A DNA stretch of 64,000 nt, from positions 124,001 through 188,000 of IMG/VR virus record IMGVR_UViG_3300037110_000087, one strand, 5' to 3'. Made by a program: the position numbers and the translations under genes. The stretch comes from a virus. Positions 19,663 to 61,479 of this stretch are shown here, one piece after another; the stretch's first letter is position 1; every line of letters starts with the position of its first letter. The notes beneath the pieces were generated by a model. It was not told the origin of the DNA. It ran no database searches and worked only from the letters and a program-made list of their open reading frames with translations.

Positions 19663-19914
19663 ATGAAACTGCTCCTGAGAGCATTCGTCAAAAAATCCAA
19701 TACCAAAGCTGAGGAAATCTATCAGTCTGAGGAATTACAGGGATTGTTCGATGAGGTGAGGGGGATCTATCCCAATTACAATTCTGACATGGTAGAGGCC
19801 GAGATTGCCACGGAATGGATTTTAGATAACTATGAGATCAGGTTCTGTAATGATGAGTTACCACTATTACTTAGAGAGGAATTATGTGGGATGGTCTTTG
19901 ACGGCCTGACCTAG
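19663..19914 (+). CDS. Leader-bearing small acidic protein (copy A)
   Basis: This 83-residue protein starts MKLLLRAFVKK, the N-terminal leader shared with several unrelated proteins in the window. The body is acidic and helical. It is a paralogue of the next gene: AEEIYQSEELQGLFDE aligns with AEKLFQSKEIDDLVIR, and EIATEWILDNYE with EAAEWVIERYE. It starts two bases after the previous stop. The function is unknown. Its place in the late cluster would fit a packaged protein. Confidence 0.7.
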   Translation: MKLLLRAFVKKSNTKAEEIYQSEELQGLFDEVRGIYPNYNSDMVEAEIATEWILDNYEIRFCNDELPLLLREELCGMVFDGLT

Positions 19915-19923
19915 GAGAACACC

Positions 19924-20205
19924 ATGAAGCTTCATCTAAAGGCATTCATTAAGGTCCAGGCAGGCCATAAGGAAGAGGCTGAGAAGCTATTTCAATCCAA
20001 GGAGATAGATGATCTCGTCATCCGAGCAAGCGAGAATTGGGAAGAATGCTATTCAGATGAGGCTCAAGCTAGAGAAGCTGCTGAGTGGGTCATTGAGAGA
20101 TACGAGGCAGAGACCAATCAGATTCTACATGTCGAGATGAAAGACGAGTTGATGAAGTTAATCGAAGATCATTTCACCAGGACTTCTTACCCGAAGGTTA
20201 AATAA
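19924..20205 (+). CDS. Leader-bearing small acidic protein (copy B)
   Basis: This 93-residue protein begins MKLHLKAFIKV and is the tandem paralogue of the gene before it, with the same helix order and a shared xxAAEWVIExYE block. It ends in a basic tail (TRTSYPKVK). The two copies differ at most positions, so the duplication is old. Ribosome site: TAGGAGAACACC. No family is recognised. Confidence 0.7.
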   Translation: MKLHLKAFIKVQAGHKEEAEKLFQSKEIDDLVIRASENWEECYSDEAQAREAAEWVIERYEAETNQILHVEMKDELMKLIEDHFTRTSYPKVK

Positions 20206-20415
20206 ATGAAACTTCATCTCATCGCCTATGTCAAGAAAGCTTCTGATTTCCCTGGTGCTGTAGAAGCAAATAAACGGTTTAATTCTGAACAATTTGATAA
20301 ATATAATATGACGGATGAAGCAGATAATGCGGAATTCGAAGACCAAGTTAGAAAAACGAACAAAAGCTTGGAAGATTATCGCAATAACCCCGAAGATTCT
20401 GAAGACGAGGACTAA
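20206..20415 (+). CDS. Leader-bearing small acidic protein (69 aa)
   Basis: The protein starts MKLHLIAYVKK and carries a short charged body with Phe/Tyr and Asn-rich segments, ending DSEDED. Its ATG is directly at the previous stop (TAAATG). It does not clearly align with copies A and B beyond the leader, which is why the shared start is notable. Unknown function. Confidence 0.65.
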   Translation: MKLHLIAYVKKASDFPGAVEANKRFNSEQFDKYNMTDEADNAEFEDQVRKTNKSLEDYRNNPEDSEDED

Positions 20416-20835
20416 ATGGCAGATTTTGAAGAGAAAATTGTAATCACCAACGTAGCCAAGGCAACGCTTAGCTCCATTATTGCCTCTGGTTCCCCTACCT
20501 TCCAGATCTCTGCATTCTCTGTAGGGACCGGTGGCTATCTACCCAGGAATCCTTTCATTGCGGTTCCCCCTGATCCCAATGCTACAGGACTTACCAATGA
20601 GATTTTTAGATCCCAGAATGTACCAACGGAAAATATTGGTAATTCCACTAAGGTTTATGTCTGCGCAATTCAGCCGGGTGATGCAGTTGGCGCTCTAGGA
20701 GAGCTTGGACTCTGGGCCACTTATCTATCTGGCCCAAATGCCGGTCAGGTATTTTTATTCGCTATCCAGAATTTTCCAGTCATTTCTATTACCGGAAATG
20801 GAAGTTACACCTGGAGAATGGTCGTGCCCATTTAA
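20416..20835 (+). CDS. Tail-collar/fibre-like attachment protein
   Basis: The 139 residues follow the pattern of phage tail-collar and fibre N-terminal domains: KATLSSIIASGSPTFQISAFSVGTGGYLP early, then PNATGLTNEIFR and GALGELGLWATYL near residues 90-105. In other phages this part links a fibre to the baseplate. Here it stands alone without a fibre shaft, so it may be an adaptor. It is unusual that it lies directly before the portal. Confidence 0.6.
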   Translation: MADFEEKIVITNVAKATLSSIIASGSPTFQISAFSVGTGGYLPRNPFIAVPPDPNATGLTNEIFRSQNVPTENIGNSTKVYVCAIQPGDAVGALGELGLWATYLSGPNAGQVFLFAIQNFPVISITGNGSYTWRMVVPI

Positions 20836-20851
20836 CTTAAAATAGGAAGCT

Positions 20852-22888
20852 ATGAGATCCCCACTATCAAAAAACGCAGTCTTCTCATTGGAAGATCTGA
20901 AGGAAATTGAGAGCAAAAAGGCTTTTAGAGCTTCTATGGGTGGTGATCCTGGGGGAATGGGTAACAGAAACACTCCAGGGATCTCAGCATTCACACCTCA
21001 GTACCACGACTTATTGTATAACAATCTGGCACAGTTCCATACTCCAAAGGCCAGAAATCTTTACAATATGCTCATGTCTCAGATCTATAATTATGACACC
21101 ATCGCTGGACCTGCGGTTGATCTCTATGCTGAGATGCCATGGTCGAGCTTTGAGTTAACTGGGATCCAGGATAGATATGTTCTCCAGAAATATGAAGATG
21201 CCCTAGCCAATCTGAAGCTAGAGTATTATATGCCAATGATTAGTGCCACTTATCTGGTATTTGGTAGAGTCTGTCTCCATTTCCTGTTCGATCAGACTCA
21301 AGGTATTTGGTCCAACCTGATCATTCATGACGATTCAAACCTGTCAGTCAAACCTGTACCTTTCCTGAATGAAGAACCCTTGGTTGACCTGATCCCCAGT
21401 AAGGCTCTATTGGATTTCGTTAGCTCTAAAGATCCGAGAACTGAGGTCTATAAACAATATCTGTCTGACGACCTGATGGCTCAGATTAAAGCTGGCCGAT
21501 CGATCCCACTTGATCCGGCCAACACTTTATATCTACCAAAGCGCAGACTGCCTTCTGATTTTATCGGTACCAGTATTTTCTCAAGAATCATTGGTTTAGT
21601 CGTATTAGAGCGAGCACTTTTCAATGCCAGTACGGCTAAGGCACAGAGAGGTGCCGGTTCGATCCGTTTGGTGAAAGTCGGTAGAACTGGTGCAGATGGC
21701 TGGATGCCTACTGATGATGAAGTGAATAGTATCATTCAGTCAATGATGGTTGCAGAAGAGGATCCCGCTGCTTCTATCGTGGGTGTGAAGACTCAGGATG
21801 TGACTGTCGAGACTATCGCCGGTTCAGGTAAGGAAGCTCTGTGGAGCATTGCTGACGACGCTGATTATATTCAGAACGCGAAATTTAAGGCTCTTGGAAT
21901 CAACGAGGAATTAATCAATGGCAGTGCTACCTACAACAATATGGAACAGGCACTATCAGTATTCCTGGATAAGATCAGACATTTCAGGGATTATCTAACT
22001 AGAAAGGTCATCGTAGAGAAGGCTCTTGAACCTATCGCGAAGGCTCATGGCTTCTATCATAAAGACACCAAGGGTTTTAACCCCTCAAGTGTATATAACA
22101 GGCGTGGTGATGATAGCAGAAGTCTAAAGGATATTCAGGATTCCAAGTTGATGTTGCCAACGATTCAATGGCATAAACCCCTTGAGCCAAGAATGGATCA
22201 GAGCTTGATTGATCTGTACAAGGTGGCAGAGGAAGTTGGTCTTCCTATTAGCTTAAGAAGATGGTCCGTTGCGGTTGGTGCCAACTTATCCGATATCAAG
22301 AAAGAAGCTCATGAAGATCTCCGCGATCGCAAAGAGATGGCTAAGATCCTCCAGGAAAGAGAAGCTCTTGGAGTTGGTGATAGTTCTAGTCTATCCGAAG
22401 ATGATATGGGAGAAGATTTCGGTGGACCCGGTGGACCCGGTGGCGCTCCTGGTGGTGACGAAGGCGGCGGTACCATGGAAGAGTCTCCTGTCGAGATGGA
22501 CAAGGTTTCTCCTTCTGACCATTCCGTAGTTGATGGAGTTCCTCCACCTCCAGGTGGCGAGCCTGCTGCTACTAAGAACCGCTTGAACATCAATACCCAT
22601 CCTCTAGCTACTAAGACCGGCTTCTGTGGGGTCAACTGGACCAAGATCAGAGCATTCTCTAAGCTTGACAGTGTGGAGAGAAGAGAAATTCTTAGAGCTA
22701 TGACCGTGAAAGATCGAGCAGTCATCAAATACGCTCTTACTTATTCTGGAGATGAGACTCTAAACCAGGAAGAGATTGGTATTATTGCTAAATTGTTCCC
22801 GAAAAATGCTTCAATGAATAAGGCACATATTGCTCACTTGTACGCTAACAAGAGTCACGATGCGAGTTTATTGACGGGAATCGAATGA
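20852..22888 (+). CDS. Portal protein
   Basis: This 678-residue protein builds the dodecameric DNA channel at one capsid vertex. It has the portal-type features of large phages: an N-terminal TPKARNLYNMLMSQIYNYDTIAGPAVDLYAEMPW clip/wing region, AQRGAGSIRLVKVG, a helix-rich stem with AALWSIADDADYIQNAK, LGINEELINGSATYNNMEQALSVF, and a C-terminal Gly/Pro-rich linker near residue 545. The gene follows the terminase by 1.6 kb and precedes the prohead protease, the classical order. Its last four bases overlap the start of the next gene. Confidence 0.85.
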   Translation: MRSPLSKNAVFSLEDLKEIESKKAFRASMGGDPGGMGNRNTPGISAFTPQYHDLLYNNLAQFHTPKARNLYNMLMSQIYNYDTIAGPAVDLYAEMPWSSFELTGIQDRYVLQKYEDALANLKLEYYMPMISATYLVFGRVCLHFLFDQTQGIWSNLIIHDDSNLSVKPVPFLNEEPLVDLIPSKALLDFVSSKDPRTEVYKQYLSDDLMAQIKAGRSIPLDPANTLYLPKRRLPSDFIGTSIFSRIIGLVVLERALFNASTAKAQRGAGSIRLVKVGRTGADGWMPTDDEVNSIIQSMMVAEEDPAASIVGVKTQDVTVETIAGSGKEALWSIADDADYIQNAKFKALGINEELINGSATYNNMEQALSVFLDKIRHFRDYLTRKVIVEKALEPIAKAHGFYHKDTKGFNPSSVYNRRGDDSRSLKDIQDSKLMLPTIQWHKPLEPRMDQSLIDLYKVAEEVGLPISLRRWSVAVGANLSDIKKEAHEDLRDRKEMAKILQEREALGVGDSSSLSEDDMGEDFGGPGGPGGAPGGDEGGGTMEESPVEMDKVSPSDHSVVDGVPPPPGGEPAATKNRLNINTHPLATKTGFCGVNWTKIRAFSKLDSVERREILRAMTVKDRAVIKYALTYSGDETLNQEEIGIIAKLFPKNASMNKAHIAHLYANKSHDASLLTGIE

Positions 22889-23504: not shown

Positions 23505-24212
23505 ATGTTTCAGAGAACCGGTGGCTATGGCTTAAAGCAGATAGAGACTTTCTCTAATGCCCGTATTGCTGGAGTTAATCGTTATGCGGCCCTTAACACT
23601 CCCGTAGGTGTGATAGATATTTCTTGGCTAGAAGCTGCTGCAGCATTTCATGATGTTAGTCCCGATCCAAATGATTATGTATTCTCCATTCAGAGAGCCG
23701 TGGTTGCTGACATCCCCAATAGAAATTCGGATGCTTTTACCAAGGCTGAACTTCATCGTTACAATCCAAATCTTTCCCTTCCAGTCTGGGCTACCTTCAA
23801 TCGTCGCCCGATCTATTTCGAACATAATCAGGTCCCTAAGGATGCAAGAGGTATGCTCTTTAAGTCCTTCGTAGATGTGGAAGGCCCTTATCAGTTGGTC
23901 ACTACCCTTTCCGGTATTTCCAAACGTAAGGACGCTGATCTTGCGGCTGCAGTTAAGAATAACACCAGACCCTACTGGTCCATGGGTTGCGTCGCGGATA
24001 CTGTCACCTGTTCATTCTGCAAAAAGAAGGCTGCGGATACCAGAGAATTCTGCACCCATATTGCCAAGCAGCTTGGCTCCCTGATTGGGAACCAATTGGT
24101 ATATGAAATTCTGGGAGGGGTTACTTATATTGAATTAAGCAATGTCTCAGATCCTGCTGCCCTGATTGCTGGTAATGGTATTCTCAATATCGTCAATGGA
24201 ATTGCTATCTAA
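23505..24212 (+). CDS. Prohead maturation protease (HK97/S78-like)
   Basis: This protease should cut the scaffold and capsid proteins during head maturation. The likely catalytic His107 lies in RPIYFEHNQV and Ser159 in PYWSMGC, the positions expected for the S78-type protease fold, which also uses a Gly-rich ARGMLF turn after the His. Just behind the Ser is a zinc-binding cluster (Cys169, Cys172, Cys183, His185: CSFC ... FCTHI). That cluster is uncommon in small prohead proteases but occurs in several large phages. The gene lies directly after the portal block. Confidence 0.75.
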   Translation: MFQRTGGYGLKQIETFSNARIAGVNRYAALNTPVGVIDISWLEAAAAFHDVSPDPNDYVFSIQRAVVADIPNRNSDAFTKAELHRYNPNLSLPVWATFNRRPIYFEHNQVPKDARGMLFKSFVDVEGPYQLVTTLSGISKRKDADLAAAVKNNTRPYWSMGCVADTVTCSFCKKKAADTREFCTHIAKQLGSLIGNQLVYEILGGVTYIELSNVSDPAALIAGNGILNIVNGIAI

Positions 24213-32656: not shown

Positions 32657-33045
32657 TGAAACCCAAAGCTAAAGTGACCGATGAGGCTATCCAAATGCTT
32701 AATGCGTTTGGGTACTCGATTACAGAAACAGTTGAAATTGGATCTTATGATCTTTGTTTGGTTTATCATATGATGGGCTTCTATCAATTGGCGATGCAAC
32801 GCCATGGATATGATTGGACAAACCTAGATCAACAGGGAACTATTTTTCCTAATTTCCCTGCGGGATCAGTTAAACCTTTCGTTTCTACACTTAAGAAATG
32901 GTCTGAAGAATATGGTGACCTCTATATCAAATCGCATAATGACGACAGGACCGAACAATACTACCGAATCTTGAAAAGACTTGGATTTAAAATTATCCAA
33001 CGTAATTTGATGGGTGAAGATCTTCTAGTAATCGAGGGGTGTTAA
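32656..33045 (+). CDS. Hypothetical protein, possibly GNAT-like
   Basis: The ATG overlaps the upstream stop by one base (TAATG). The 129-residue product has helix-strand alternation and ends YYRILKRLGFKIIQRNLMGEDLLVI, which is faintly like the last helix and strand of an N-acetyltransferase, but acetyl-CoA-binding Q/RxxGxG is not evident. I treat it as unknown. It is the first gene of a run of small non-structural proteins. Confidence 0.6.
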   Translation: MKPKAKVTDEAIQMLNAFGYSITETVEIGSYDLCLVYHMMGFYQLAMQRHGYDWTNLDQQGTIFPNFPAGSVKPFVSTLKKWSEEYGDLYIKSHNDDRTEQYYRILKRLGFKIIQRNLMGEDLLVIEGC

Positions 33046-33263
33046 TGAAATTGGATCTAAAAGCAACTCCGGTAACTTCTGAAATGATTAATGAACTTTT
33101 ATCAGATGTTATGGATGGACTCAAGGAATCATATAAGAGAGTGGTTGTAGCTGAGAGTGAACTAGCAAAACGTCCGACCTTACAGGGAATGTTACGGGAA
33201 GCCGAAGAACTAATTCTCAAAGCTAGTCAGAAGATCACCGGGGTTAAAAATTCCCTGGAGTAG
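33045..33263 (+). CDS. Leader-bearing small protein (72 aa)
   Basis: The ATG at 33045 is preferred over the upstream GTG at 33039 because GAGGGG is well spaced from it and because it yields MKLDLKATPV, the shared leader. The rest is a single helical segment with Lys/Glu pattern (SDVMDGLKESYKRVVVAESELAKR) and could form a coiled coil. Unknown function. Confidence 0.65.
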   Translation: MKLDLKATPVTSEMINELLSDVMDGLKESYKRVVVAESELAKRPTLQGMLREAEELILKASQKITGVKNSLE

Positions 33264-33928: not shown

Positions 33929-34339
33929 ATGGCCGAGCTTAGACTAATAGCAAGAATCAAAAAGGCTGGTTGGGGCCAGGGTAAAGAGGTTCATTATACT
34001 CATAACTATGCCTTGATAATAGAATTCAATAATGATCATTCTGATGCGTTTGAAAACTTCTTACACAGAACATTAGGAATCTGTATTGATGATGGTTTTA
34101 AGTATGATATTGCGCGTCCTGAAGGGGTAGGAATCATAAGTCCAATACTCAATCGCTTGAAGGACCTCATCCCAGATATCCTGAGAATCCCAGATTCACA
34201 CCGATATATTAAGGGGTATTTCTTCGAAAATAAACTAGGAAGAAGAATCGAGACAATCTGGGAAGCTCCTGAAATCACTGAAGAAGACAAGGAAATCTTA
34301 CATGGAATGGGCATTAAGGGCAGACATAAAAAGAAATGA
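33929..34339 (+). CDS. Leader-bearing protein (136 aa)
   Basis: The ATG at 33929 is preferred over the TTG at 33908 because GACGAGGAA is correctly spaced and it gives MAELRLIARIKK, a variant of the shared leader. The body has helix-strand alternation (HNYALIIEFNNDHSDAFENFLHRTL) and a basic C-terminus (KGRHKKK). No family is recognised. It overlaps the start of the following 53-residue gene. Confidence 0.65.
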   Translation: MAELRLIARIKKAGWGQGKEVHYTHNYALIIEFNNDHSDAFENFLHRTLGICIDDGFKYDIARPEGVGIISPILNRLKDLIPDILRIPDSHRYIKGYFFENKLGRRIETIWEAPEITEEDKEILHGMGIKGRHKKK

Positions 34340-34499: not shown

Positions 34500-36737
34500 A
34501 TGAGTTTTAGATTCTCAGCCACGATGTCACAGTCCAAACGCGATTTCCTGATGAATAAATATTCTGTGGATGAATCAGTGATGGACACTGTGGAATATAT
34601 TGACCCAACGCCAAACTACGATTATGCGGATTGGGTGATTAAGAATCTTCAGAACGGGAAGATCACGAAGACTGACTATGAGAAGAACAACAAGCACCTG
34701 GATAAATTCCACCGTTTGAAGAACTCTCCCAAGTTTAAGGAATATCTTAAGGCTGCGGGACACACCACGGATATCAACAGATATGAACCGAATCAATTAT
34801 TCGATGTGTTAGATAACTTTGGTGATTCCAAGAAACAGGAAAAGAGAGATGTCTTTGAAGGGATTGGAGGGGCCGAGATCAAATATAGAGATGCTACCTG
34901 GGTAGTGTACAAGGTGACATCAGTGGAAGCAGCCATGACTCTAGGATCGAACACCAATTGGTGTACGGCTAATCATGGTCATGCTTCTAGTTATATTGGT
35001 CGTGGTGATTTATGGATCTTCTATAAAAACGGGAAACCATATCTCCAATTACATCCAAAGGATCGCATGATCTGTGATCGTAAGGATAATTCATTTAGAG
35101 ATGGTTGTCACTTGAAAGATTCGCACATTTATGATCTGCTGGAGAAGTTATTGGATGATCCAGCAATCGCTGATTATTTTGAGACTATCATACCCTATGT
35201 TGAACCATCAGATCGATATATTCAGATCTTGAGCAGGAAAAATCCGAAAATGATTATGGACATCCTTCGAAAACTGATGATCCGGAGATACCCAGAGCTA
35301 GAGCCTAAGATATTTGAGGTAGACCCTGAGAAAGTGGGAGCGGAAGGGGATGATGAAGGGGATGGTGAGGGCATCAATATAGCTAGAGATTATATGGCGG
35401 CGTTTGGTCCTAGAGATCCAGCAATGGAACCCTATATTATCAAATTTGGTACTTGGGCTGCAGCCTATGCCTTATTTGTGATGAATGGCCCTTGGCCGGA
35501 AGCTGAAGAGAAGATTCATAAACTGAAGAAATCAGAATTGAAGTCTCAGTATCTCAATACTCTTGGCCAGCATATGATTACTTATAATGACTTTATTGAT
35601 ATGCTGGAGGCGGAAGAAGTCAAACATAGATATGAACCTTTTGAGGAAAAATTACTTAACTTCCACAAAAAGAATACTGTCCATCGTAATGATATTTCAA
35701 CTTTACTTGATTATTGCGAACAGGCTAAATATTGGTGGCCTGAAGTAGTGTCCCTGGTCGTAGATGATTTCAAGAGGTCTGCGCTTAAATCAAATCCAAA
35801 AGGTCTAACAGGTTTTGCCGTTGCTAATCTAAAACAGTTATTAGAATTAGCAAATAAATTGAAGCTAGAAGATCCAAAGATAACCCAATTGAATGCAGTA
35901 AAAAATCTTGCCATCAAGGGTTCTGTTGAATATATGATTAGGATTAAAGGTACTGATTGGATCCCTGATGATTGTAAGAATTGTGGACCCTGGATTGAGA
36001 ATAATTTAACGACACTTCTGGATAAGAAGATTCCATTAGTCAAAATTTTAGATGCTATTCAAAAAATGGCCTACAGCAACAAGACACTTGTGATTAAGGA
36101 TTTTGATAGAATCATGCCCTTAATTTCCGTAGCCCCAAATAAACTTAAATCAGAAGCCCTAGAATATCTCAAAGATTATCTGGTATCACGTAATCTGTTT
36201 TATCCGGAGCTTTTTGAAACAGAAAAAACAATAGATATTTCTGAATTATCTGAGCCCTATGCGAAAGAGCACTTACTCCCTTATCTTTCTAAACTAGACT
36301 TTGATTATTGTGACGGTGACTCGACCCTCGAATTATTTGGTGATCAATGGAAACAGCTTTCTAATGATCAGAAAATGAGTATATTAGGGAACTGCAGCTT
36401 GGATGAGGATGATGCTGATAAAATATTACCCAAATTGAATGATGTTGATATCAAAGTATTACGTTCCTCCACAACAGGTAAAGTTTCATTAAATGTTGGC
36501 TATATTATTTCTCAGCTGAGTAGTAGTACTTTAATATGGCCCAAATTTAACGAGTGGATCATAGCTAATGCTAAGAAACCATTCTTTTCTCAGATAGTTG
36601 GTAATATAATTGGACAAGATGGACTTCTGAGATATATTAGAAATGCTGGGCTGGAGGATATTACAGGTGTTCCCAAGTTGAAGCCAAAGAGGCCAACAAG
36701 GCATTCTGGTCCTCATCGCGAACCAGTAGAAGAATAA
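34500..36737 (+). CDS. Large protein with WCTA motif and RWPEAE-type helical repeats
   Basis: The 745-residue protein starts MSFRFSATMSQ, a loose form of the shared leader. Residues 15-120 resemble a conserved phage helical region (YDYADWVIKNLQNGK). Residues about 135-205 contain GSNTNWCTANHGHASSY and LWIFYKNGKPYLQ, a domain with an invariant WCTA core that recurs in large phages with no known function. The C-terminal 450 residues are helix repeats with WPEAEEKI and WPEVVSLV, related to the 305-residue repeat protein at 50518. The fold is probably alpha-solenoid. The whole may be a large virion-packaged protein. Confidence 0.6.
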   Translation: MSFRFSATMSQSKRDFLMNKYSVDESVMDTVEYIDPTPNYDYADWVIKNLQNGKITKTDYEKNNKHLDKFHRLKNSPKFKEYLKAAGHTTDINRYEPNQLFDVLDNFGDSKKQEKRDVFEGIGGAEIKYRDATWVVYKVTSVEAAMTLGSNTNWCTANHGHASSYIGRGDLWIFYKNGKPYLQLHPKDRMICDRKDNSFRDGCHLKDSHIYDLLEKLLDDPAIADYFETIIPYVEPSDRYIQILSRKNPKMIMDILRKLMIRRYPELEPKIFEVDPEKVGAEGDDEGDGEGINIARDYMAAFGPRDPAMEPYIIKFGTWAAAYALFVMNGPWPEAEEKIHKLKKSELKSQYLNTLGQHMITYNDFIDMLEAEEVKHRYEPFEEKLLNFHKKNTVHRNDISTLLDYCEQAKYWWPEVVSLVVDDFKRSALKSNPKGLTGFAVANLKQLLELANKLKLEDPKITQLNAVKNLAIKGSVEYMIRIKGTDWIPDDCKNCGPWIENNLTTLLDKKIPLVKILDAIQKMAYSNKTLVIKDFDRIMPLISVAPNKLKSEALEYLKDYLVSRNLFYPELFETEKTIDISELSEPYAKEHLLPYLSKLDFDYCDGDSTLELFGDQWKQLSNDQKMSILGNCSLDEDDADKILPKLNDVDIKVLRSSTTGKVSLNVGYIISQLSSSTLIWPKFNEWIIANAKKPFFSQIVGNIIGQDGLLRYIRNAGLEDITGVPKLKPKRPTRHSGPHREPVEE

Positions 36738-49584: not shown

Positions 49585-49851
49585 ATGCCCAGGGAATTTC
49601 TCTATGAGCCACTAACCATCGATTTTCTCCCTGAAGTAGCGGAGAAAATCGCAGTTATGCTAAGTATGGGCTACGAAACCCTAGATATATGGAATTGCCC
49701 TGGTGCTCCCAACGAATTTCAAGCCTTGGCCTACTTGCAGGACTATGTTAAAATCGAGTCGCTTCACCCAAGGCAGGTGAAGACCCTAAATTCCTGGATG
49801 TTGGGTGCAACGATCAGACAAGGAAAACTCGATGAACCAATTACACCTTAA
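49585..49851 (+). CDS. Hypothetical protein (88 aa)
   Basis: ATG with AAGGAAATCA. The product is compact and helical (LPEVAEKIAVMLSMGYETLD) with a Trp and a Cys. It overlaps the next gene by 20 bases, so translation is probably coupled. No family is recognised. Confidence 0.65.
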   Translation: MPREFLYEPLTIDFLPEVAEKIAVMLSMGYETLDIWNCPGAPNEFQALAYLQDYVKIESLHPRQVKTLNSWMLGATIRQGKLDEPITP

Positions 49852-50521
49852 AGCCTTCGTAAAAGAATCCACTTCCTTACCAAAGTATTTGCTTCCAAGC
49901 TCAGAGAAATACCAACTATCCCTGGTAGATGGGCATTACAATGAATTCCTTCAGTGGTTCAGGGAACCCTATTCCAAGAAGTTCTTGAAATCGTTGGGTA
50001 TCAAAGATATTCTTTGCTCCGATGGCGAGGTATTCGAGACTAACGAAAACGCATGGCAGAACCACAAGAAGAAATACATTCCTGATTCATACAAGCGTGT
50101 TGAATTGCAGTTGGACTACATCAGTGAAGTTCCTGAAGACTTGCTGATTAAAACCTGCCCCTTCCCACAATCGGAATTCCAGAATCTATGGTATCGAAGG
50201 GAAACAACTGAAAATGTCACTAAGTTCATCCGATATCCTTGGGGAATCTGGTTGAGTACATCTACCGAATATTGTGCAATGAACAACCCCAATTACAAGG
50301 ATGCTATTCCCCTTTGGATTGATATTAGGAAGCCTTACTTCCCATTAGTCAGAGGTCAGGATGAACACTATGGTGATATCGGCAAGAAATTCCAGAGGTT
50401 TGTCCATTCCTTGAAATTACGAGGGTACGATTGTTATGTCCAGGGGTGTGAGACTAACAGCATTACCGTGTTCGGCAGAAATACCAAAATACTGAACGCC
50501 ATGACCGGGGAGCTAATGTGA
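49832..50521 (+). CDS. Leader-bearing ADP-ribosyltransferase-like protein
   Basis: The ATG at 49832 is used because it follows AAGGAAAAC and gives MNQLHLKAFVKES, the shared leader. The C-terminal 110 residues match the late half of ART-like toxin folds found in phages: GIWLSTSTEYCAMNNP, PLWIDIRKPY, then LRGYDCYVQG with TNSITVFGRNTKIL, a pattern of GYDG-type turn followed by a strand and Ile/Lys. The classical R-S-E catalytic residues cannot be assigned with certainty (candidate Ser-Thr-Ser near residue 140). The call rests on the motif order and is tentative. Cytoplasmic or packaged. Confidence 0.35.
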   Translation: MNQLHLKAFVKESTSLPKYLLPSSEKYQLSLVDGHYNEFLQWFREPYSKKFLKSLGIKDILCSDGEVFETNENAWQNHKKKYIPDSYKRVELQLDYISEVPEDLLIKTCPFPQSEFQNLWYRRETTENVTKFIRYPWGIWLSTSTEYCAMNNPNYKDAIPLWIDIRKPYFPLVRGQDEHYGDIGKKFQRFVHSLKLRGYDCYVQGCETNSITVFGRNTKILNAMTGELM

Positions 50522-51435
50522 AGCTGCATCTAATAGCGACTCCTAAGGTGGAAGAGAAGTTTACATTGGCCCTGGTTATTGGGGATAACAGAGAGTATAT
50601 GCCCGACTGGGGCAGTTTCTCTTCAATTGAGAAGGCCAAAGAATTCCTAGAAACAACCGCAGCGGAGGGTCACCTTTGTGACTTAGAAGCTAGCATTGGC
50701 TACTTCGTGTCAGAAACCAAAAGACCTGGATGTCTTGGATATTTTCCAATCCTGGCACCCTATTTTGGCGACGATTGGAAAGATAAATCCTACTATGACC
50801 ACATGGCTGATGCGAAGGTCGAGGTCTACAAGGGGAACAATATAGAACGAAGATTGTTGAAGAGCAAGAATATTGATAAAATCATGGATTATGTCTTCAG
50901 CACAGGGAAAAATCGTTGGCCTGAGGCCGAACCCATCATAATTAAGACCCATGAGGCGATTGAGTATGCCAGCGAGGTAATCAAGGGCCGCTGGCCTGAA
51001 CTTGAGAGCTACCTCCTAAGCAGTGACTCAGCTCATGAAATTCTCGCCTACGCTTTGCATATCTTCAAGGGCCGTTGGCCCGAGGCTGAACCCATCGTGC
51101 TTAGAGATTACTCAGCCTCCTATCATTATGCTATAAATATTATCAAGGACCGTTGGCCTGAGGCTGAACCACTATTACTCAAGGAAGGTAGTTCACACAC
51201 ACTCGCAACTTATGCTAGAGTGTGTGTGAAAGGTCGTTGGCCCGAGGCTGAGTCAATAATCCAAAAAGATCCGAACGAATGGTTCAAATATCTGCAGTTC
51301 CTATCAGATCCGACACCAGAAGGATGGGATCGGGAACCGAACAAACGATATTTGAAAGACATCGGAATAAATCCCGTTTATCTTGATATCAAACCCATCC
51401 CTGGTAAATGGAACACTCCCAGAGGTTACGACTAG
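50518..51435 (+). CDS. Leader-bearing RWPEAE-repeat protein
   Basis: The start is GTG within ATGTGA and gives MKLHLIATPKV, the shared leader. Residues 1-125 are a separate domain. Residues 133-250 carry five repeats of 25-28 residues centred on RWPEAE (residues 133, 158, 186, 212, 240), each followed by an amphipathic helix with a YA or LA pattern. This looks like an alpha-helical repeat solenoid. A similar helix unit appears in the 745-residue protein at 34500. Function is unknown; protein binding is expected of such repeats. Confidence 0.7.
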   Translation: MKLHLIATPKVEEKFTLALVIGDNREYMPDWGSFSSIEKAKEFLETTAAEGHLCDLEASIGYFVSETKRPGCLGYFPILAPYFGDDWKDKSYYDHMADAKVEVYKGNNIERRLLKSKNIDKIMDYVFSTGKNRWPEAEPIIIKTHEAIEYASEVIKGRWPELESYLLSSDSAHEILAYALHIFKGRWPEAEPIVLRDYSASYHYAINIIKDRWPEAEPLLLKEGSSHTLATYARVCVKGRWPEAESIIQKDPNEWFKYLQFLSDPTPEGWDREPNKRYLKDIGINPVYLDIKPIPGKWNTPRGYD

Positions 51436-55978: not shown

Positions 55979-56215
55979 TTATCCCCCAGTCTTATGCCAT
56001 TTGCCATCAGCCTTCAGAGTGTATTCCTGGCCCTTGCCCGATCCTAGGCCGATGCCTTCGAAAGTGTGACAAGAGGAACAGGCACAGCCAGCGATGATCC
56101 CACCACTGGTTCTGATCCTGGCATCGTAGAACTTCCTAACGATCGGAGTCTCACAGAATTCACATTTGGTAGGGACCTCGCCTAACCAAGTCACTTCTTC
56201 CAGTTTGTTAGCCAT
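55979..56215 (-). CDS. Zinc-type small protein (78 aa)
   Basis: The ATG at 56215 has AAGGTGAAATCG before it and overlaps the upstream gene's stop. The protein has CEFC near residue 17 and CACSSCH near residue 44, a two-by-two Cys pattern for one zinc, then a Gly/Lys-rich tail. Unknown function; a nucleic-acid or protein-binding role is plausible. Confidence 0.65.
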   Translation of the reverse strand: MANKLEEVTWLGEVPTKCEFCETPIVRKFYDARIRTSGGIIAGCACSSCHTFEGIGLGSGKGQEYTLKADGKWHKTGG

Positions 56216-56885
56216 CGATTTCACCTTGGGTATTGGATTGGGTGACCCGCACCTTGGAGGCTTCGACTTCCTCGCGGCGAAGCGCACCACGGAGCATGTT
56301 GCCGATGTTCATCCGGATCATACCGGCGTTGAGGGTAGCATACTTCTTCTTGAGAGCCGAGACATCCAGATACTTCATGACCATCGGGACCTCCCAGATA
56401 TCCTCGATGGTGGCCGCGAACCGCAAGGCGGTAGCGATCTTGTCGCCGTTGTCCTGATGGCGAACCTTGTTGTCATCGCGGACGGTAGCGTTCTTCTGCC
56501 GGAAGGTGGAGAACCCCGCCAGGGTGTTGCGGGGTTCGGTCCGCTCAGCCTTCGGGGCCTTGGGCTGCTTCGGGGCCTTCTCCGCCTTGACCTTCTTGGT
56601 CGGAGCGGCATCATGAAGGCTAATGGGGAAAGCTTTCCCCGCTTCCACATCCTTGGTCTTGTCCGCTTCGATGGCCTCCACCATGGCTTCAGCGGTCATG
56701 GGCGCAGCAGGGGCCTGGGTCATGGGAGTGAAGCTCTTGACGAAGACCTGTTCGGTCATTTCACCTTCGGCAGCACCCTGGTAGCTGATGTAGGTCCACC
56801 GGCCCCGCTTCTCGACGGACTTGACGGTGATGGCCCTGGGGTCATTGCTCCTGGGGTCACGGAACTCGGAATTGACGGTGATCAT
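56208..56885 (-). CDS. Hypothetical early protein with Lys/Ala linker (225 aa)
   Basis: The ATG at 56885 follows AGGAGAAATCC. Residues 1-85 are a folded beta domain (SVEKRGRWTYISYQGAA), residues 100-150 a Lys/Ala/Pro-rich linker (KKVKAEKAPKQPKAPKAE), and residues 155-225 a helical C-terminal domain with Asn/Met-rich pattern that could bind nucleic acid. It lies under the P5 promoter. No family is recognised. Confidence 0.6.
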   Translation of the reverse strand: MITVNSEFRDPRSNDPRAITVKSVEKRGRWTYISYQGAAEGEMTEQVFVKSFTPMTQAPAAPMTAEAMVEAIEADKTKDVEAGKAFPISLHDAAPTKKVKAEKAPKQPKAPKAERTEPRNTLAGFSTFRQKNATVRDDNKVRHQDNGDKIATALRFAATIEDIWEVPMVMKYLDVSALKKKYATLNAGMIRMNIGNMLRGALRREEVEASKVRVTQSNTQGEIDG

Positions 56886-56925
56886 TGGATTTCTCCTGTC
56901 GAATGGCCCAATGGGCGATGTGAAA

Positions 56926-56954
56926 ATTCTAACATGATTGCTCATTTAGCGCAA
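56926..56954 (-). promoter_or_regulatory. Minus-strand promoter P5
   Basis: On the minus strand: TTGCGC (-35), 17 bp, TAGAAT (-10, with TGT before it). It is the weakest match of five similar promoters and drives the 225-residue gene. Confidence 0.5.
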
Positions 56955-56959
56955 TTATC

Positions 56960-57316
56960 CTAGCTGTGGTTGATGCGGCTCATCTGATATTCGATTTCGA
57001 ACTCATGCCATTGTTCGCGTTTCACCAGGGTTTCCTGCCTGACCTTGGCAGTGATTTCCGTGATGAACTTGCGGAGGTTGATGGTCCGGTGAGTAGGAGC
57101 AAGATGGGTGTAATTAGGAGAGTCCTGGCGAATCCAGCCCTCCACGCAGCCCTCTGCCTCACAAGGGAACCACTCTTCCCGGCCATTCCAGCCGCCCTGG
57201 CCATGGCACTCGCTGCACTCGCAGAAGCGGTGTTCCCGTTCGCCAGCCCAGGTGAGTTTCGGAGTGCGCTGGGTGGTCACAAGGCCGGTGGAGAAGGTCT
57301 GAGGGGTCATGGTCAT
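56960..57316 (-). CDS. Small zinc-knuckle protein (118 aa)
   Basis: ATG at 57316 with AGGAGAAATCCC upstream. Residues about 30-60 (CECSECHGQGGWNGREEW, CEAEGC) show a DnaJ-like four-Cys knuckle; the rest is a helical N- and C-terminal tail. It is the first gene after promoter P1. DnaJ-type knuckles bind zinc and unfolded protein or nucleic acid, but no J-domain is present. Confidence 0.6.
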   Translation of the reverse strand: MTMTPQTFSTGLVTTQRTPKLTWAGEREHRFCECSECHGQGGWNGREEWFPCEAEGCVEGWIRQDSPNYTHLAPTHRTINLRKFITEITAKVRQETLVKREQWHEFEIEYQMSRINHS

Positions 57317-57338
57317 GGGATTTCTCCTGTGTAATTCT

Positions 57339-57367
57339 ATTATACCACAGGGACAGATTTCACACAA
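57339..57367 (-). promoter_or_regulatory. Minus-strand promoter P1
   Basis: On the minus strand: TTGTGT (-35, 57362-57367), 17 bp of GAAATCTGTCCCTGTGG, TATAAT (-10, 57339-57344), extended by TG. The spacer is almost the same in P2 and P3, beyond what promoter function needs. Confidence 0.8.
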
Positions 57368-57388
57368 GTATTTCTCTCTATGAGGAGT

Positions 57389-57562
57389 TTATAGGTCCCT
57401 GAGGGTGGCTCGGGCTAAGGCAGCACAGGCCGGACCTTCCTTTCCCATTCTCCCAATCTTACGGAGAACACGCTGGAGGGCCAAGTTCTCGGTTTCCAGT
57501 CTATCCCTGGTTTCTATCAGGGCCAGGGCGACCGTCTTCCATTCCTTGCTGGTTCGTGCCAT
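57389..57562 (-). CDS. Small coiled-coil protein (57 aa)
   Basis: ATG at 57562 with TAGGAGCGAAC. The product is one long helix (ALIETRDRLETENLALQRVLRKI), a likely coiled coil, followed by a Gly/Pro turn and Ala/Arg helix. Unknown function. Confidence 0.6.
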   Translation of the reverse strand: MARTSKEWKTVALALIETRDRLETENLALQRVLRKIGRMGKEGPACAALARATLRDL

Positions 57563-57570
57563 GTTCGCTC

Positions 57571-57780
57571 CTAGAAGGGCAACCTGTCATCGTCGGGTTC
57601 CACGCGCTTCCTGGGTTTGAAGACTTCGCGGGTGAGCGACTTGATTGCGGAATGGGGGTTACCCAAGTGAGCGAATGGGAAATCATGTTCCGGGTGCCTT
57701 GCGATTCTACCGGCTTCGACGGTGAGACAGCGCAGGTTGAGGTTGAGGTAGAAATACTTGATGAAAAGATGATGGCGCAT
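57571..57780 (-). CDS. Small hypothetical protein (69 aa)
   Basis: I place the start at the ATG at 57780, after AGGGGATCTC, because an upstream in-frame ATG lacks a ribosome site. The product is basic, His/Arg-rich (MRHHLFIKYFYLNLN) and ends in an Arg/Asp-rich tail. No family is recognised. Confidence 0.5.
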   Translation of the reverse strand: MRHHLFIKYFYLNLNLRCLTVEAGRIARHPEHDFPFAHLGNPHSAIKSLTREVFKPRKRVEPDDDRLPF

Positions 57781-57788
57781 GAGATCCC

Positions 57789-57938
57789 CTACGCGGCTTG
57801 CAGCTTGTCGCAGTTGTCCAGGTCGCAGTTCCAGGAGTCGACCTCGTGCCAAGATGGACCCTGCTCCCGACCGGCGAAGCTGAGACAGGTCATGAGATCA
57901 CGGAAGGCGAGATAGAGGGAATTATAGAGTTCGTTCAT
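57789..57938 (-). CDS. Small hypothetical protein (49 aa)
   Basis: The ATG at 57938 overlaps the stop of the upstream 128-residue gene and has GAGGATGAA before it. The 49 residues have a helical start (MNELYNSLYLAFRDL) and a Cys/Asp-rich end with CDLDNCD. The overlap supports translation; the role is unknown. Confidence 0.5.
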   Translation of the reverse strand: MNELYNSLYLAFRDLMTCLSFAGREQGPSWHEVDSWNCDLDNCDKLQAA

Positions 57939-58321
57939 TTCATCCTCAGCAATTCGTTGGCACGGTTGACAGCGATCTTCCGATCGTCGCCCTTGTAATC
58001 GGGGATGGTTTCGAGAAGGGCCGACAGCGCGTCTTCCAGGTCTTCGATCCGCTTGGCATCGTCGACCACTTCGACCATAAGCTGCTCGAATTCCTCCCGG
58101 CTATCCGCAGCGGCATAGCAACCCTGCCGATGCCGATCGAAGGGAACCTTCTCAAGTTCCTTAATCGCGACCATCGCTGGTATATAGTCAGCCACCAGTC
58201 CGCTGTCACCGTGATCAAGGAAGACGAACACGTGGTTCGCACACACGAGGAGTCGATTTCGTGCCTGATACCTGAACTTGGTGCCATGGGGGAGATCGAA
58301 CAACCGATGGAGTTCGCTCAT
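57935..58321 (-). CDS. Hypothetical early protein (128 aa)
   Basis: ATG with TTAGGAGGATGAA. The N-terminal half has beta strands (RLLVCANHVFVFLD) and the C-terminal half a Glu/Leu-rich helix (REEFEQLMVEVVDDAKRIEDLEDALSALLE), a probable coiled coil. No known family. Confidence 0.65.
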   Translation of the reverse strand: MSELHRLFDLPHGTKFRYQARNRLLVCANHVFVFLDHGDSGLVADYIPAMVAIKELEKVPFDRHRQGCYAAADSREEFEQLMVEVVDDAKRIEDLEDALSALLETIPDYKGDDRKIAVNRANELLRMK

Positions 58322-58330
58322 TTCATCCTC

Positions 58331-58984
58331 CTAATTGGTCTGGCTGAGGTTCTTCATGGCACGGCGCACCTTGATCTGCCATGCCTGATTAGACTTCTCC
58401 CGGAAGAATGGCTCGAGGGTGCCCTGGGGGTCCTTGCCGACCAGCCCTTCGATTGCAGAGTCGTTCAGCTTGACGATTTCCTTGAACACCTTGGCCGGAT
58501 CGCGCTGGATGATACGAGCCAGCCAGAGTCCCTCTTCAATGACATAGTGGGACTCTACGTTAGTGGTGAGCCTGGGGAACATGCCAGCCAGAAGGACCTG
58601 ACGAGCCAAGAACGTCGATCCCAGCAGGAATTCAGAATCGAACACGCAGAGATCGAAGATGTAGAGGGTGTCCTTGATCTGCGGGGTCTTGGCATCAATC
58701 AACTCGCAGAGGAACACGGTCCACTTGCCAGGAGTGGCATACTTGACGAGCTTCCTAGTCCTGTCAGTCGGCTTCCACTGTTTGTGGACTTCACCATGCC
58801 GGTTCAGGTTGTGGATCTCGCCAGTCGGGGATACCCCGATAATGGAGTAAGTGCCGTTCATCTTGTATTGCCACAGCCAGCCCTTGCCGGTGTAGTGCGA
58901 GAACATCGCAGGAGCGACAGCGTATTCAGGCCGCGCTGGGAAGCGGAGGAAGGACGGTTTCCAGTCGGTGAAGGGCAGTGCCAT
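58331..58984 (-). CDS. Ligase-like nucleotidyltransferase domain (217 aa)
   Basis: This resembles a stand-alone adenylation domain of ATP-dependent DNA/RNA ligases. WQYKMNGTYSIIG holds the lysine motif (Lys41 of K-M-N-G, in place of the usual K-x-D-G). Then NRHGEVHKQW, LCELIDAK (a DGE-like position), TLYIFDLCVFD (motif IIIa) and IEGLVGKDPQ (motif IV, EG-x-V-x-K) follow in order, and KVRR near the end is a motif V candidate. No OB-fold domain follows, so it may act with a partner. It could instead be a capping-like or decoy enzyme. Strand joining is plausible, not certain. Confidence 0.65.
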   Translation of the reverse strand: MALPFTDWKPSFLRFPARPEYAVAPAMFSHYTGKGWLWQYKMNGTYSIIGVSPTGEIHNLNRHGEVHKQWKPTDRTRKLVKYATPGKWTVFLCELIDAKTPQIKDTLYIFDLCVFDSEFLLGSTFLARQVLLAGMFPRLTTNVESHYVIEEGLWLARIIQRDPAKVFKEIVKLNDSAIEGLVGKDPQGTLEPFFREKSNQAWQIKVRRAMKNLSQTN

Positions 58985-58992
58985 GGCATCCT

Positions 58993-59208
58993 CTACAGGT
59001 TGTTGTAGACGTTGACCGCACGGAAGAGGTCACAGCCCTGGTAGATGCTGGGGTCTTCCTGACCCGAACCAGCGACACCATGAGTGACCTTATATTCACT
59101 GGTCCCATTGAACCAGATTCGGCAAAGCATCCTTCCTCTGACTTCACTGGCGTAGAGGCTCCAGTGATTCTTCGCGTGTCGGATCACTTCGCTGACGCTG
59201 ATCTGCAT
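58993..59208 (-). CDS. Small hypothetical protein (71 aa)
   Basis: The ATG at 59208 follows GTAGGAGAAATCCCA. The product has a beta-rich middle (MLCRIWFNGTSEYKVTHGV) and no recognised motif. It is the first gene after promoter P2. Confidence 0.6.
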   Translation of the reverse strand: MQISVSEVIRHAKNHWSLYASEVRGRMLCRIWFNGTSEYKVTHGVAGSGQEDPSIYQGCDLFRAVNVYNNL

Positions 59209-59227
59209 TGGGATTTCTCCTACAACC

Positions 59228-59256
59228 AGTATACCATAGGGACGGATTTCACACAA
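59228..59256 (-). promoter_or_regulatory. Minus-strand promoter P2
   Basis: On the minus strand: TTGTGT (-35, 59251-59256), 17 bp of GAAATCCGTCCCTATGG, TATACT (-10, 59228-59233). Spacer differs from P1 by two bases. Confidence 0.75.
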
Positions 59257-59259
59257 TTC

Positions 59260-59586
59260 CTAGCTGCGAAGCCGCTCATCCCAGCAGCATTCACCAACCC
59301 AGCACCGAAGGTGGCCCAAGTTGGTCCGATGAGCAGTGACTATGCTGGTCTGCTTGTGGCAGATACCACACTCGACCTGGACGCGTTTGCGCGGCTTGGG
59401 AGTAGCCAGGGCCACACCGATCTCAGTCAGGAACCGGCCCAGGGCCACACGCTGTTCCTGGGTGCTGAGGGTGCCAGTCATGCCCTCTTCCTCAGCGCAC
59501 TGGATGGGTAGAGAGTCTAGGCGGTAGCAGCCTGATTCATCCAGTTCGAATCGGAACTGATCATTCTCGATCTTGATGGGTTTCAT
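59260..59586 (-). CDS. Small zinc-finger-type protein (108 aa)
   Basis: ATG with CGGAGGATCAG. The last 40 residues carry CGICHKQ and RCWVGECCW, a four-Cys plus His set for one zinc. The first 70 are an acidic helical region. No family is recognised; a nucleic-acid or protein contact is possible. Confidence 0.6.
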   Translation of the reverse strand: MKPIKIENDQFRFELDESGCYRLDSLPIQCAEEEGMTGTLSTQEQRVALGRFLTEIGVALATPKPRKRVQVECGICHKQTSIVTAHRTNLGHLRCWVGECCWDERLRS

Positions 59587-59607
59587 CTGATCCTCCGATA
59601 CCCCATT

Positions 59608-59623
59608 GGCCCCTTTCGGGGCC
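59608..59623 (-). terminator. GNRA-type hairpin between minus-strand genes
   Basis: On the minus strand GGCCCC-GAAA-GGGGCC forms a 6-bp stem with a stable tetraloop, between the 260-residue gene and the zinc-type gene. No T-run follows, so it may attenuate or protect RNA ends. Confidence 0.4.
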
Positions 59624-59675
59624 TTGGGCGGGTTCCTAACTTAGCAGAATTGCTCTATCTGCCTATTTCAGAACC

Positions 59676-60458
59676 CTATTTCTTCGCGATGGCCTTCTTG
59701 GGTTCTTCGGGAGCCAGGGAGATCCCATCGGCCTTGAGGATGCTGAACGCCAGGGCCAGCAGATCCTTGTCGTTGCCCTTCTCATCCTTCTCCGCGATGA
59801 GCATGGTCTTGATGGCCGGGGTGCACAGGATGTCGATGGCCTGTTCGATCTGTTCCTTGCTGGGCAGCTTGCAAGCCGCTTCGATGGCGTCATCGCTGGA
59901 GATCGCGATCTTGGCTTCGGCCTGATGCAGGATCACCGCGACACCCGCGAATTCGGGGATCTTGGCGATAACCGGGCTGATGGCTGCGCTCAGCTTGCTC
60001 ATCAGGACCTGATTGCCCATGATCTCCGGATTGAAGTAGAACTGGTCGGCGGTCTTGACGTTCTCGCCCAGCTTGGTGATCAGGTCGGCGCTCAGGGCCT
60101 TGAGGATATCCTGCTGATCGCTGGTGATCTCGATGCGCATATCCCGGCGCTTGATCTGGCAGTCAGCGCTGGAATGGTTGTCTTCGCCCTTGAAGTTGGC
60201 CGGACGGTTGTGGGTCAGGCTGGCGATGTTGGAGTAGGTGCTGACGATCTGCTGCTTGATGGACGCTTCCTTGGATTCCTTGAGTCCCTTGAGGGTGTTC
60301 ATCAGGGCATTGATGGAAGCCAGTTCGTCCAGACCCTCGATCTCGTAGCTGGCCTTCACGGCGGTCTTCGCCTTGGTGACGGGAGCGGCAACGATGGGAG
60401 CCGATCCAAAGGCATCGAAGGCGGGAGCGGTCTTGGTGGCGGTGGCGGTCTTGGCCAT
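59676..60458 (-). CDS. Hypothetical early protein (260 aa)
   Basis: The ATG at 60458 with TAGGAGAAATCCA is preferred. The first 40 residues are Ala/Thr/Lys-rich and flexible. Then a helical Lys/Glu pattern (KGLKESKEASIKQQIV), a Met-rich core and a Lys/Ala-rich end follow. No family is recognised. It is the largest gene of the P3 unit and may be a DNA- or host-interacting protein. Confidence 0.6.
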   Translation of the reverse strand: MAKTATATKTAPAFDAFGSAPIVAAPVTKAKTAVKASYEIEGLDELASINALMNTLKGLKESKEASIKQQIVSTYSNIASLTHNRPANFKGEDNHSSADCQIKRRDMRIEITSDQQDILKALSADLITKLGENVKTADQFYFNPEIMGNQVLMSKLSAAISPVIAKIPEFAGVAVILHQAEAKIAISSDDAIEAACKLPSKEQIEQAIDILCTPAIKTMLIAEKDEKGNDKDLLALAFSILKADGISLAPEEPKKAIAKK

Positions 60459-60491
60459 TGGATTTCTCCTAGCGGGATTGAACCCTAAAAA

Positions 60492-60520: not shown

Positions 60521-60536
60521 GTATTTCCGTGAGGGT

Positions 60537-60701: not shown

Positions 60702-60727
60702 GGGGGCCTCCAGGGGTGGACTCAAAT

Positions 60728-60793
60728 CGGGATGGTGGTGTTTCAACCCAGTCTGGAGGGGATTACCCTCGTAGGACTATGACCACCATCCCG
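60728..60793 (-). promoter_or_regulatory. 12-bp inverted repeat in the P4 leader RNA
   Basis: A perfect 12-bp inverted repeat (60728-60739 and 60782-60793, CGGGATGGTGGT with its complement) encloses 42 bases that hold a smaller GAGGG...CCCTC stem. In the minus-strand leader RNA it should fold. A mini-ORF of eight codons (MVVIVLRG) with its own GGAGAAATCC site lies in it, which suggests attenuation or leader-peptide control. Confidence 0.5.
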
Positions 60794-60810
60794 GATTTCT
60801 CCATACCTAA

Positions 60811-60839
60811 ATTATAACATATCTTAGGATTTCACACAA
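60811..60839 (-). promoter_or_regulatory. Minus-strand promoter P4
   Basis: On the minus strand: TTGTGT (-35, 60834-60839), GAAATC then a divergent 11 bp, TATAAT (-10, 60811-60816). It shares the -35 and GAAATC with P1-P3 but not the rest of the spacer. Confidence 0.7.
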
Positions 60840-60905
60840 TAGGTAAATTTTGCCTATTACACAGGGGTCCCGGAACCCACCTTCCAGATATGGCTCCGGA
60901 CGGGT

Positions 60906-60911
60906 TATAAT
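60906..60911 (+). promoter_or_regulatory. Likely -10 box for the plus-strand pair
   Basis: TATAAT at 60906-60911 lies 23 bp before the ATG at 60934. The -35 region is poor (TCCAGA). It is divergent from P4 and would give a leader of about 16 bases. Confidence 0.45.
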
Positions 60912-60933
60912 TAGAAGGGGAGAGATCGTAGAG

Positions 60934-61479
60934 ATGCAGTTAGTTCTGACCGCCATAGTCGCGACATTCAACAAAGAGAAGGCCACAGCGAACCGGATCT
61001 GTGCCATGTTGAGGGAGTATAAGATCCCTTTCACCAAGAGCTACAATGGCATTTATGTCAAGTTTGCGCGTTTCATCATAAGAATCTCTAACCATAAGGC
61101 TCCAGTGTATAAGGATGATGCCCTTGCTCTACAGAGGAGACACAATCTGGATATTTCCCCAGGTAAGAACACCCTAGCAGAGGCATTTCATCTGATTGAG
61201 GATTTTCACAATGGGAGTGATAGTCTGGAGAACCGAGTTAAGAAAAGAACACATGAGGTCATAGATATCTTCAATGACTATGGAATTCCATTTACAATCG
61301 AGAAGATACCAAATTGTACTACTGTAATTCACTTTAATGACGGGTACAAGGTCAGAATATCAGATGCTCCCATGGGGGAACTGGATAAATACAACTGTGA
61401 TCTTGATCTATATCCGGGTAGTCCAGACAGCAAGCTAAGTGTAGTTGAATTACTATCTGAATTAACGAAGGTATCTTAA
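60934..61479 (+). CDS. Leader-bearing protein (181 aa)
   Basis: The ATG at 60934 is preferred over an upstream ATG at 60850 because the -10 at 60906 lies between them and because it gives MQLVLTAIVATF, the shared leader in a variant form. The body has two similar halves (REYKIPFTKSYNGIYVKF and DYGIPFTIEKIPNCTTVIHF), suggesting an internal duplication of about 90 residues. Unknown function. Confidence 0.65.
   Translation: MQLVLTAIVATFNKEKATANRICAMLREYKIPFTKSYNGIYVKFARFIIRISNHKAPVYKDDALALQRRHNLDISPGKNTLAEAFHLIEDFHNGSDSLENRVKKRTHEVIDIFNDYGIPFTIEKIPNCTTVIHFNDGYKVRISDAPMGELDKYNCDLDLYPGSPDSKLSVVELLSELTKVS

What the first reader, a model, noticed from the sequence alone, without database searches (positions are those of the whole stretch)
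19663..61479. A shared N-terminal leader on at least nine otherwise different proteins
Nine products start with M, zero to three residues, then [L]-x-[L]-x-A (or close), then basic residues: MKLLLRAFVKK (19663), MKLHLKAFIKV (19924), MKLHLIAYVKK (20206), MKLDLKATPV (33045), MAELRLIARIKK (33929), MGKLRLAFKTVVK (45668), MNQLHLKAFVKE (49832), MKLHLIATPK (50518), MQLVLTAIVAT (60934); MSFRFSATM (34500) is a looser case. Except 19663 and 19924, which are paralogues, the bodies look unrelated. T4 internal proteins and Alt share a similar short capsid-targeting sequence that the prohead protease removes. If this leader does the same, these are packaged, injected proteins. Four starts I assigned partly because of the leader, so the count carries some circularity.
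Basis: partly seen in the sequence, partly recalled or inferred. Interest (0 to 1): 0.78.

Follow-up and report, generated by a model that had tools for sequence, protein, structure and literature searches.

The report
Shared N-terminal tag on phage effectors
A giant bacterial virus puts the same 11-residue start on about 33 otherwise mostly unrelated proteins, many of them enzymes that other phages inject into their host, so the tag probably works as a shipping label that loads them into the virus particle.

Summary
The leader is real and genome-wide. The window lies in a 307,124-bp phage record. About 33 of its ~374 genes start M-K-L-x-L-x-A-x-[VI]-K-K. A model trained only on leaders outside the window finds six of the nine listed (0.05 expected); 33045 is probable, 45668 and 60934 are not supported, and 34500 belongs to a separate paralogous family. 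Synonymous codons vary freely, so the peptide is what is conserved.

Three records related at core proteins (44-71% identity; two may be one phage) carry the tag on other bodies; eleven other phages do not. No tagged protein has an orthologue in the two large relatives, whose core genes match.

The cargo resembles injected effectors: five of six ART-PolyVal ADP-ribosyltransferase genes are tagged, plus NUDIX and SET proteins. NUDIX and ART homology begins well inside the protein. Tagged genes form tandem clusters, some beside the portal and capsid genes, and a head maturation protease gene follows the portal.

Best explanation: a capsid-targeting tag working like the T4 CTS, with unrelated sequence and more cargo. 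Cleavage is not supported: no acidic site, no clear enrichment of T4 or phiKZ protease motifs. Packaging is inferred, not shown. A second, C-terminal peptide occurs mainly on tagged proteins.

The parts
19663..19695 (+). Leader MKLLLRAFVKK of the 83-aa ORF 19663-19914
   Evidence: 20.9 bits with a model trained outside the window
19924..19956 (+). Leader MKLHLKAFIKV of the 93-aa ORF 19924-20205, a paralogue of 19663
   Evidence: 23.3 bits; paralogy
20206..20238 (+). Leader MKLHLIAYVKK of the 69-aa ORF 20206-20415
   Evidence: 23.8 bits
33045..33077 (+). Probable leader MKLDLKATPVT of the 72-aa ORF 33045-33263
   Evidence: 9.4 bits; GAGG upstream of the ATG
33929..33964 (+). Leader MAELRLIARIKK of the 136-aa ORF 33929-34339
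   Evidence: 15.1 bits; ribosome-binding-like AAGGAGACGAGG upstream
34268..34336 (+). C-terminal peptide PEITEEDKEILHGMGIKGRHKKK, shared with four other proteins of the genome
   Evidence: 5 occurrences against 0.065 expected, four of them in tagged proteins
49832..49867 (+). Leader MNQLHLKAFVKE of the 229-aa ORF 49832-50521; its body is homologous to the tagged ART-PolyVal-like protein 99202-99624
   Evidence: 19.3 bits; homology 65 bits; the homologue matches PF18760 at 1.8e-05
50518..50550 (+). Leader MKLHLIATPKV (GTG start) of the 305-aa ORF 50518-51435
   Evidence: 17.8 bits
45668..45706 (+). Listed as a leader, not supported (MGKLRLAFKTVVK, out of register)
   Evidence: 7.6 bits, within background
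60934..60966 (+). Listed as a leader, not supported (MQLVLTAIVAT, no basic residues)
   Evidence: not among the top 14 window starts
34500..36737 (+). 745-aa protein of a separate paralogous family; its N-terminus is not this leader
   Evidence: alignment of six paralogues
20852..22888 (+). Portal protein; three tagged genes lie 440-1190 bp upstream
   Evidence: phrog_16240, E 1.4e-98
23505..24212 (+). Head maturation protease, candidate processing enzyme
   Evidence: phrog_18299, E 1.4e-31
16836..19196 (+). Terminase large subunit, used to place the phage
   Evidence: homology to PaBG_00108, annotated terminase large subunit; 44% to G001

Best explanation
The leader is a capsid-targeting tag. 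Late in infection the tagged proteins are made, an amphipathic beta-strand-like N-terminus (alternating K-L-x-L-x-A-x-V, then basic K-K-[AS]) docks on a core or shell component of the prohead, and the cargo is enclosed with the DNA and delivered into the next host cell, where ADP-ribosyltransferase, NUDIX, SET and unknown effector domains act on the host. Shown here: the tag, its confinement to about 11 residues, selection on the peptide rather than the DNA, sharing between related phages on unrelated bodies, and the effector-like cargo. Inferred: late expression, docking partner, packaging and injection. Open: whether the tag is removed.
For: About 33 tagged genes; a model from the 8 window leaders finds 21 elsewhere above 12 bits against 0.4 expected. 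Conservation stops after about residue 12, and synonymous codons are free: same-codon fraction 0.345 against 0.325 +/- 0.017 simulated. The tag recurs in G001, G006 and G007/L071: pattern counts for G000, G001, G006 and G007 are 24, 7, 6 and 1 against 1, 1, 0 and 0 for the reversed control, and 7 against 6 in eleven other phages together. No tagged G000 protein has a detectable orthologue in G001/G006, although terminase, portal, protease, capsid and many other genes do. Five of six ART-PolyVal genes are tagged; NUDIX 5.6e-15 and SET 4.4e-13. NUDIX homology to 93 phage records begins mostly at residue 20 or later and ART homology of 28377 at residue 291 in most records, so the tag is an add-on there. 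Tagged genes are tandem-clustered: 12 adjacent pairs against 3.5, none of 20,000 shuffles as high; 7 against 3.1 near head genes, P 0.028. Head maturation protease present. [quoted passage not shown] 10 residues of IPIII suffice (PMC9026906); ARTs and NUDIX proteins are argued to be frequently packaged (PMC9503650).
Against: No virion data. No recognisable protease site follows the tag. Many tagged genes are far from head genes, and the P 0.028 proximity test is not independent of the clustering. G001/G006 cargo has no ART-PolyVal hit; one looks like an R-S-E ART (FRG..STS..ExE) by eye, but Pfam and PDB are silent. The window ART homologue 49832 has lost the histidine of the YHG motif. PaBG, a better studied relative, lacks the tag.
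Confidence: 0.6

Rival explanations
1. The tag directs effectors to some other place or partner in the infected cell (membrane, nucleoid, replication site, or a chaperone or adaptor), not into the head.
For: Many tagged genes are not next to head genes; a short basic amphipathic strand could bind many partners.
Against: No phiKZ gp54 (nuclear shell protein) homologue in G000, G001 or G006, so a phage-nucleus import signal is unlikely. The cargo types are ones that other phages are inferred to package (PMC9503650, PMC5512222).
Confidence: 0.22
2. The conserved start helps expression: a translation-enhancing or mRNA-level element, or a stability signal at the N-terminus.
For: Position at the extreme 5' end of the coding sequence; A-rich lysine codons.
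Against: Codons vary as freely as genome codon usage predicts and upstream sequences differ; capsid and portal genes do not carry it.
Confidence: 0.08
3. The leader is the first strand of one widespread fold, so the proteins are diverged paralogues.
For: Two pairs of tagged proteins are paralogues, and class 3 proteins share a longer start.
Against: Bodies of 59-450 aa contain different known folds (ART, NUDIX, SET), and homology to untagged relatives begins after the leader.
Confidence: 0.05
4. A secretion or membrane signal that exports the proteins.
For: Short, basic N-terminus.
Against: No hydrophobic core of signal-peptide length: polar and apolar residues alternate over about 11 positions. 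NUDIX and ART enzymes generally use intracellular substrates.
Confidence: 0.03

Closest known systems
T4 capsid targeting sequence (CTS) of IPI, IPII, IPIII and Alt
   Same: A short N-terminal peptide on otherwise diverse, fast-changing proteins, including an ADP-ribosyltransferase; about 10 residues; the phage encodes a head maturation protease.
   Different: Sequence appears unrelated (recalled, not aligned); no Glu cleavage site after the tag; about 33 carriers in place of a handful; strand-like alternation of residues; encapsidation not demonstrated.
N-terminal propeptides of phiKZ/SPN3US head and ejection proteins
   Same: Giant phages; propeptides inferred to target proteins to the prohead (PMC5694885).
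   Different: Those are mostly over 100 residues and cleaved after AxE or SxE-like sites; here 11 residues and no such site evident.
Polyvalent proteins (Iyer et al. 2017, PMC5512222)
   Same: Same effector types, ART-PolyVal above all, predicted to be injected.
   Different: Polyvalent proteins fuse many domains in one chain; here mostly one recognisable effector domain per small protein, united by a peptide tag. No leader was found by text search of that paper.

Membership tests
T4-type capsid targeting sequence | Short conserved N-terminal peptide shared by otherwise unrelated proteins | tested here: met
T4-type capsid targeting sequence | Carriers are incorporated into the prohead | not testable with these tools
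   needs virion proteomics or fusions
T4-type capsid targeting sequence | Removed by the prohead protease after a (L/I/F)xE site | tested here: not met
   motif in 6% of tagged against 15% of other proteins in residues 9-20; the actual site preference of this protease is unknown
T4-type capsid targeting sequence | The phage encodes a prohead protease | tested here: met
   window 23505-24212, phrog_18299 E 1.4e-31
T4-type capsid targeting sequence | Sequence similarity to T4 CTS | not tested
   no alignment to T4 sequences was run
phiKZ/SPN3US propeptides | Cleavage after [SAG]xE | tested here: inconclusive
   14% against 9% in residues 9-20; 61% against 42% in residues 6-60
Polyvalent proteins | Several disparate domains in one polypeptide | tested here: not met
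   most tagged proteins are 59-300 aa with one recognisable domain or none; 228684 may combine a weak ParB-like match and ART
Polyvalent proteins | Presence of ART-PolyVal or related effector domains | tested here: met
   five tagged genes
Phage-nucleus import signal (chimalliviruses) | The phage encodes the nuclear shell protein | tested here: not met
   phiKZ gp54 finds nothing in G000, G001 or G006

The most novel reading that the evidence does not exclude
A cargo-loading system unlike the T4 CTS: an uncleaved strand-like N-terminal tag, sometimes combined with a C-terminal GMGIKGK peptide, docks some 30 different effectors into the head, so that effectors can be exchanged freely by acquiring the tag.
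Probability: 0.35. Interest if true: 0.85.

Novelty: new variant of a known kind. Interest (0 to 1): 0.72.

Why it matters
If right, the tag gives a sequence-readable list of about 30 candidate injected proteins of one phage, most with no recognisable domain, and a handle to find the docking site in the head. It would show that a short capsid-targeting peptide with freely exchanged cargo exists outside the T4 group, and it suggests a new address for loading proteins into large phage heads.

Tried and rejected
PaBG and Rctr197k as tag bearers: no excess. Leader pattern in the bacterial and archaeal genome collection: 3 single matches, no tagged ORF above 11 bits in those loci. Contigs caught by the first viral pattern scan (L026-L028) share one gene family with an isolated match; G003 as a whole has no further one. 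Tunturiibacter phage Tunturi_5, caught by the ART search, is unrelated by terminase and shows little excess (3 against 1). AlphaFold of 49832 with two sequences was useless (pLDDT 39.5). Homologues of 49832 and of the G001 ART-like protein for a better fold were not found in useful number. Search for a distinct late promoter gave only extended -10 boxes, upstream of two tagged genes, and was uninformative. ParB-like folds suspected by eye in 188786 and 32364 were not confirmed. A 'portal protein' PHROG match (phrog_15528, 1.9e-06) among the 37 tagged proteins could not be assigned to a member (family searches exhausted).

Full report
Setting. The window is bases 124001-188000 of a 307,124-bp virus record. 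It contains the terminase, portal (phrog_16240, 1.4e-98) and head maturation protease (phrog_18299, 1.4e-31); the major capsid protein lies outside it at 93154-94272 (phrog_2522). The portal is 25-33% identical to those of PaBG, Yoloswag, RHEph12 and similar large phages. Core proteins are 44-61% identical to those of two contigs of one metagenome (G001, G006, perhaps one virus in two pieces), and the capsid protein is 71% identical to that of G007.

Observation. All listed sequences exist. The whole record was read in pieces. A weight model of the ten residues after Met finds 33 starts at 15 bits or more after removal of one false hit; above 14 bits it finds 39 of 9,088 start codons against 9 of 70,387 internal positions, some of which are mis-called starts. 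To avoid training on the test set, a model from leaders outside the window was applied to the window: six starts above 12 bits, 0.05 expected. The reverse test, eight window leaders used on the rest, gave 21 against 0.4. A DNA pattern that needs no start assignment gives 24 matches against 1 for the reversed control. So the motif is far beyond chance, but 45668, 60934 and 34500 cannot be counted with it.

Anatomy. Consensus M-K-L-H-L-K-A-F-V-K-K-A. Leu3 (34 of 36), Leu/Phe5 and Ala7 (36 of 36, required by the pattern used to align them) are fixed, position 9 is mostly V/I/L, positions 10-11 are mostly basic, and position 12 is often A or S. After that nothing is conserved. Residues 2-12 are 27% K/R and 2.8% D/E, against 12% and 11.5% in other genes. 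Codons for conserved residues vary as genome usage predicts, so selection acts on the peptide.

Relatives. The tag occurs in G001, G006 and G007, in the first two more often as MKL[HR][IV]xA. It shows no excess in PaBG, Rctr197k, RHEph12, Yoloswag, GR11A, Tunturi_5 or five more distant contigs. Comparison of proteomes shows many shared core genes between G000 and G001/G006, but no tagged G000 protein has a match there. Tagged genes sit in similar slots: a short way behind the syntenic gene 116774-117286 in G000 (118035 on) and its counterpart in G006 (72407), and downstream of the capsid gene in G000 (91180) and L071 (4419, 6294). The tag is kept while the cargo turns over.

Cargo. Of 37 tagged or tag-like proteins scanned, five match ART-PolyVal, one NUDIX, one SET and one an ExoX-like C-terminal domain. 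Genome-wide, ART-PolyVal matches fall in six genes, counting one split gene once, and five of them are tagged. The window protein at 49832 is homologous to the tagged ART-like protein 99202-99624. In 37003-37497 homology to phage NUDIX proteins mostly begins at residue 20 or later; in 28377-29729 ART homology begins near residue 291 in most records. The genome also has an untagged SET-like homologue at 65483. In G001 a tagged protein (90936-91502) has FRG, STS-like and ExE motifs typical of R-S-E ADP-ribosyltransferases by eye; this was not confirmed by profile search. G007 has a tag-like start on a WG-repeat protein.

Second peptide. [DE]x[DE]KxFLxGMGIKG[KR] occurs in five proteins (0.065 expected), at or near the C-terminus in three tagged ones (91180, 228113, 157929 = window 33929). 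In 118035 a variant is followed at once by a second leader (MELHLVATIQKK) with a ribosome-binding-like sequence, as if two tagged proteins had been fused, or as an internal start. The regular expression was written after three of the five had been seen, so the expectation is indicative. T4 Alt is processed at both ends (PMC9026906), a possible parallel.

Mechanism. [quoted passage not shown] I therefore favour capsid targeting (0.6). Proteolytic removal is left open: a protease exists, but its site is unknown and no T4 or phiKZ type site follows the tag. A phage-nucleus signal is unlikely because no nuclear shell homologue was found. No step of packaging or injection has been shown.

Literature. 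Text searches of the paper library found no description of this leader; the library holds open-licence papers only, so an earlier description elsewhere cannot be excluded.

Noticed in passing
L014 9850-17141 (genome 282850-290144): Another N-terminal family, MKIRxGFVSNSSSSSF, on at least five different-looking proteins in one cluster; no family match in NCBIfam for the shared part.
   Followed up: partly
genome 25776, 119247, 120312, 90663-91175: A longer start, KLKFxAKKxKKYPTITFxKDNKSGNDKSAVKPL, on four proteins; it begins like the leader and part of it is repeated inside the 119247 protein.
   Followed up: partly
window 34500-36737 and five paralogues: Unknown 430-750 aa family with a GS[GN]TxWCT motif; no significant Pfam match.
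   Followed up: partly
genome 98400-98811: A tagged ART-PolyVal gene is split over two ORFs; the C-terminal part continues in another frame.
   Followed up: partly
window 16836-19196, residues about 128-257: The terminase of this phage and of G001 carries an intein-like insert ahead of the SGKT motif (seen in alignment; not tested with a profile).
   Followed up: no
window about 56000-60000: Block with 56% G+C in a genome of about 44%, with ORFs called mainly on the minus strand.
   Followed up: no
genome 245973-248018: Volactin-family actin-like protein with an intein domain.
   Followed up: no
window 5480-5552: A tRNA-Asp call inside a long ORF, probably false.
   Followed up: no
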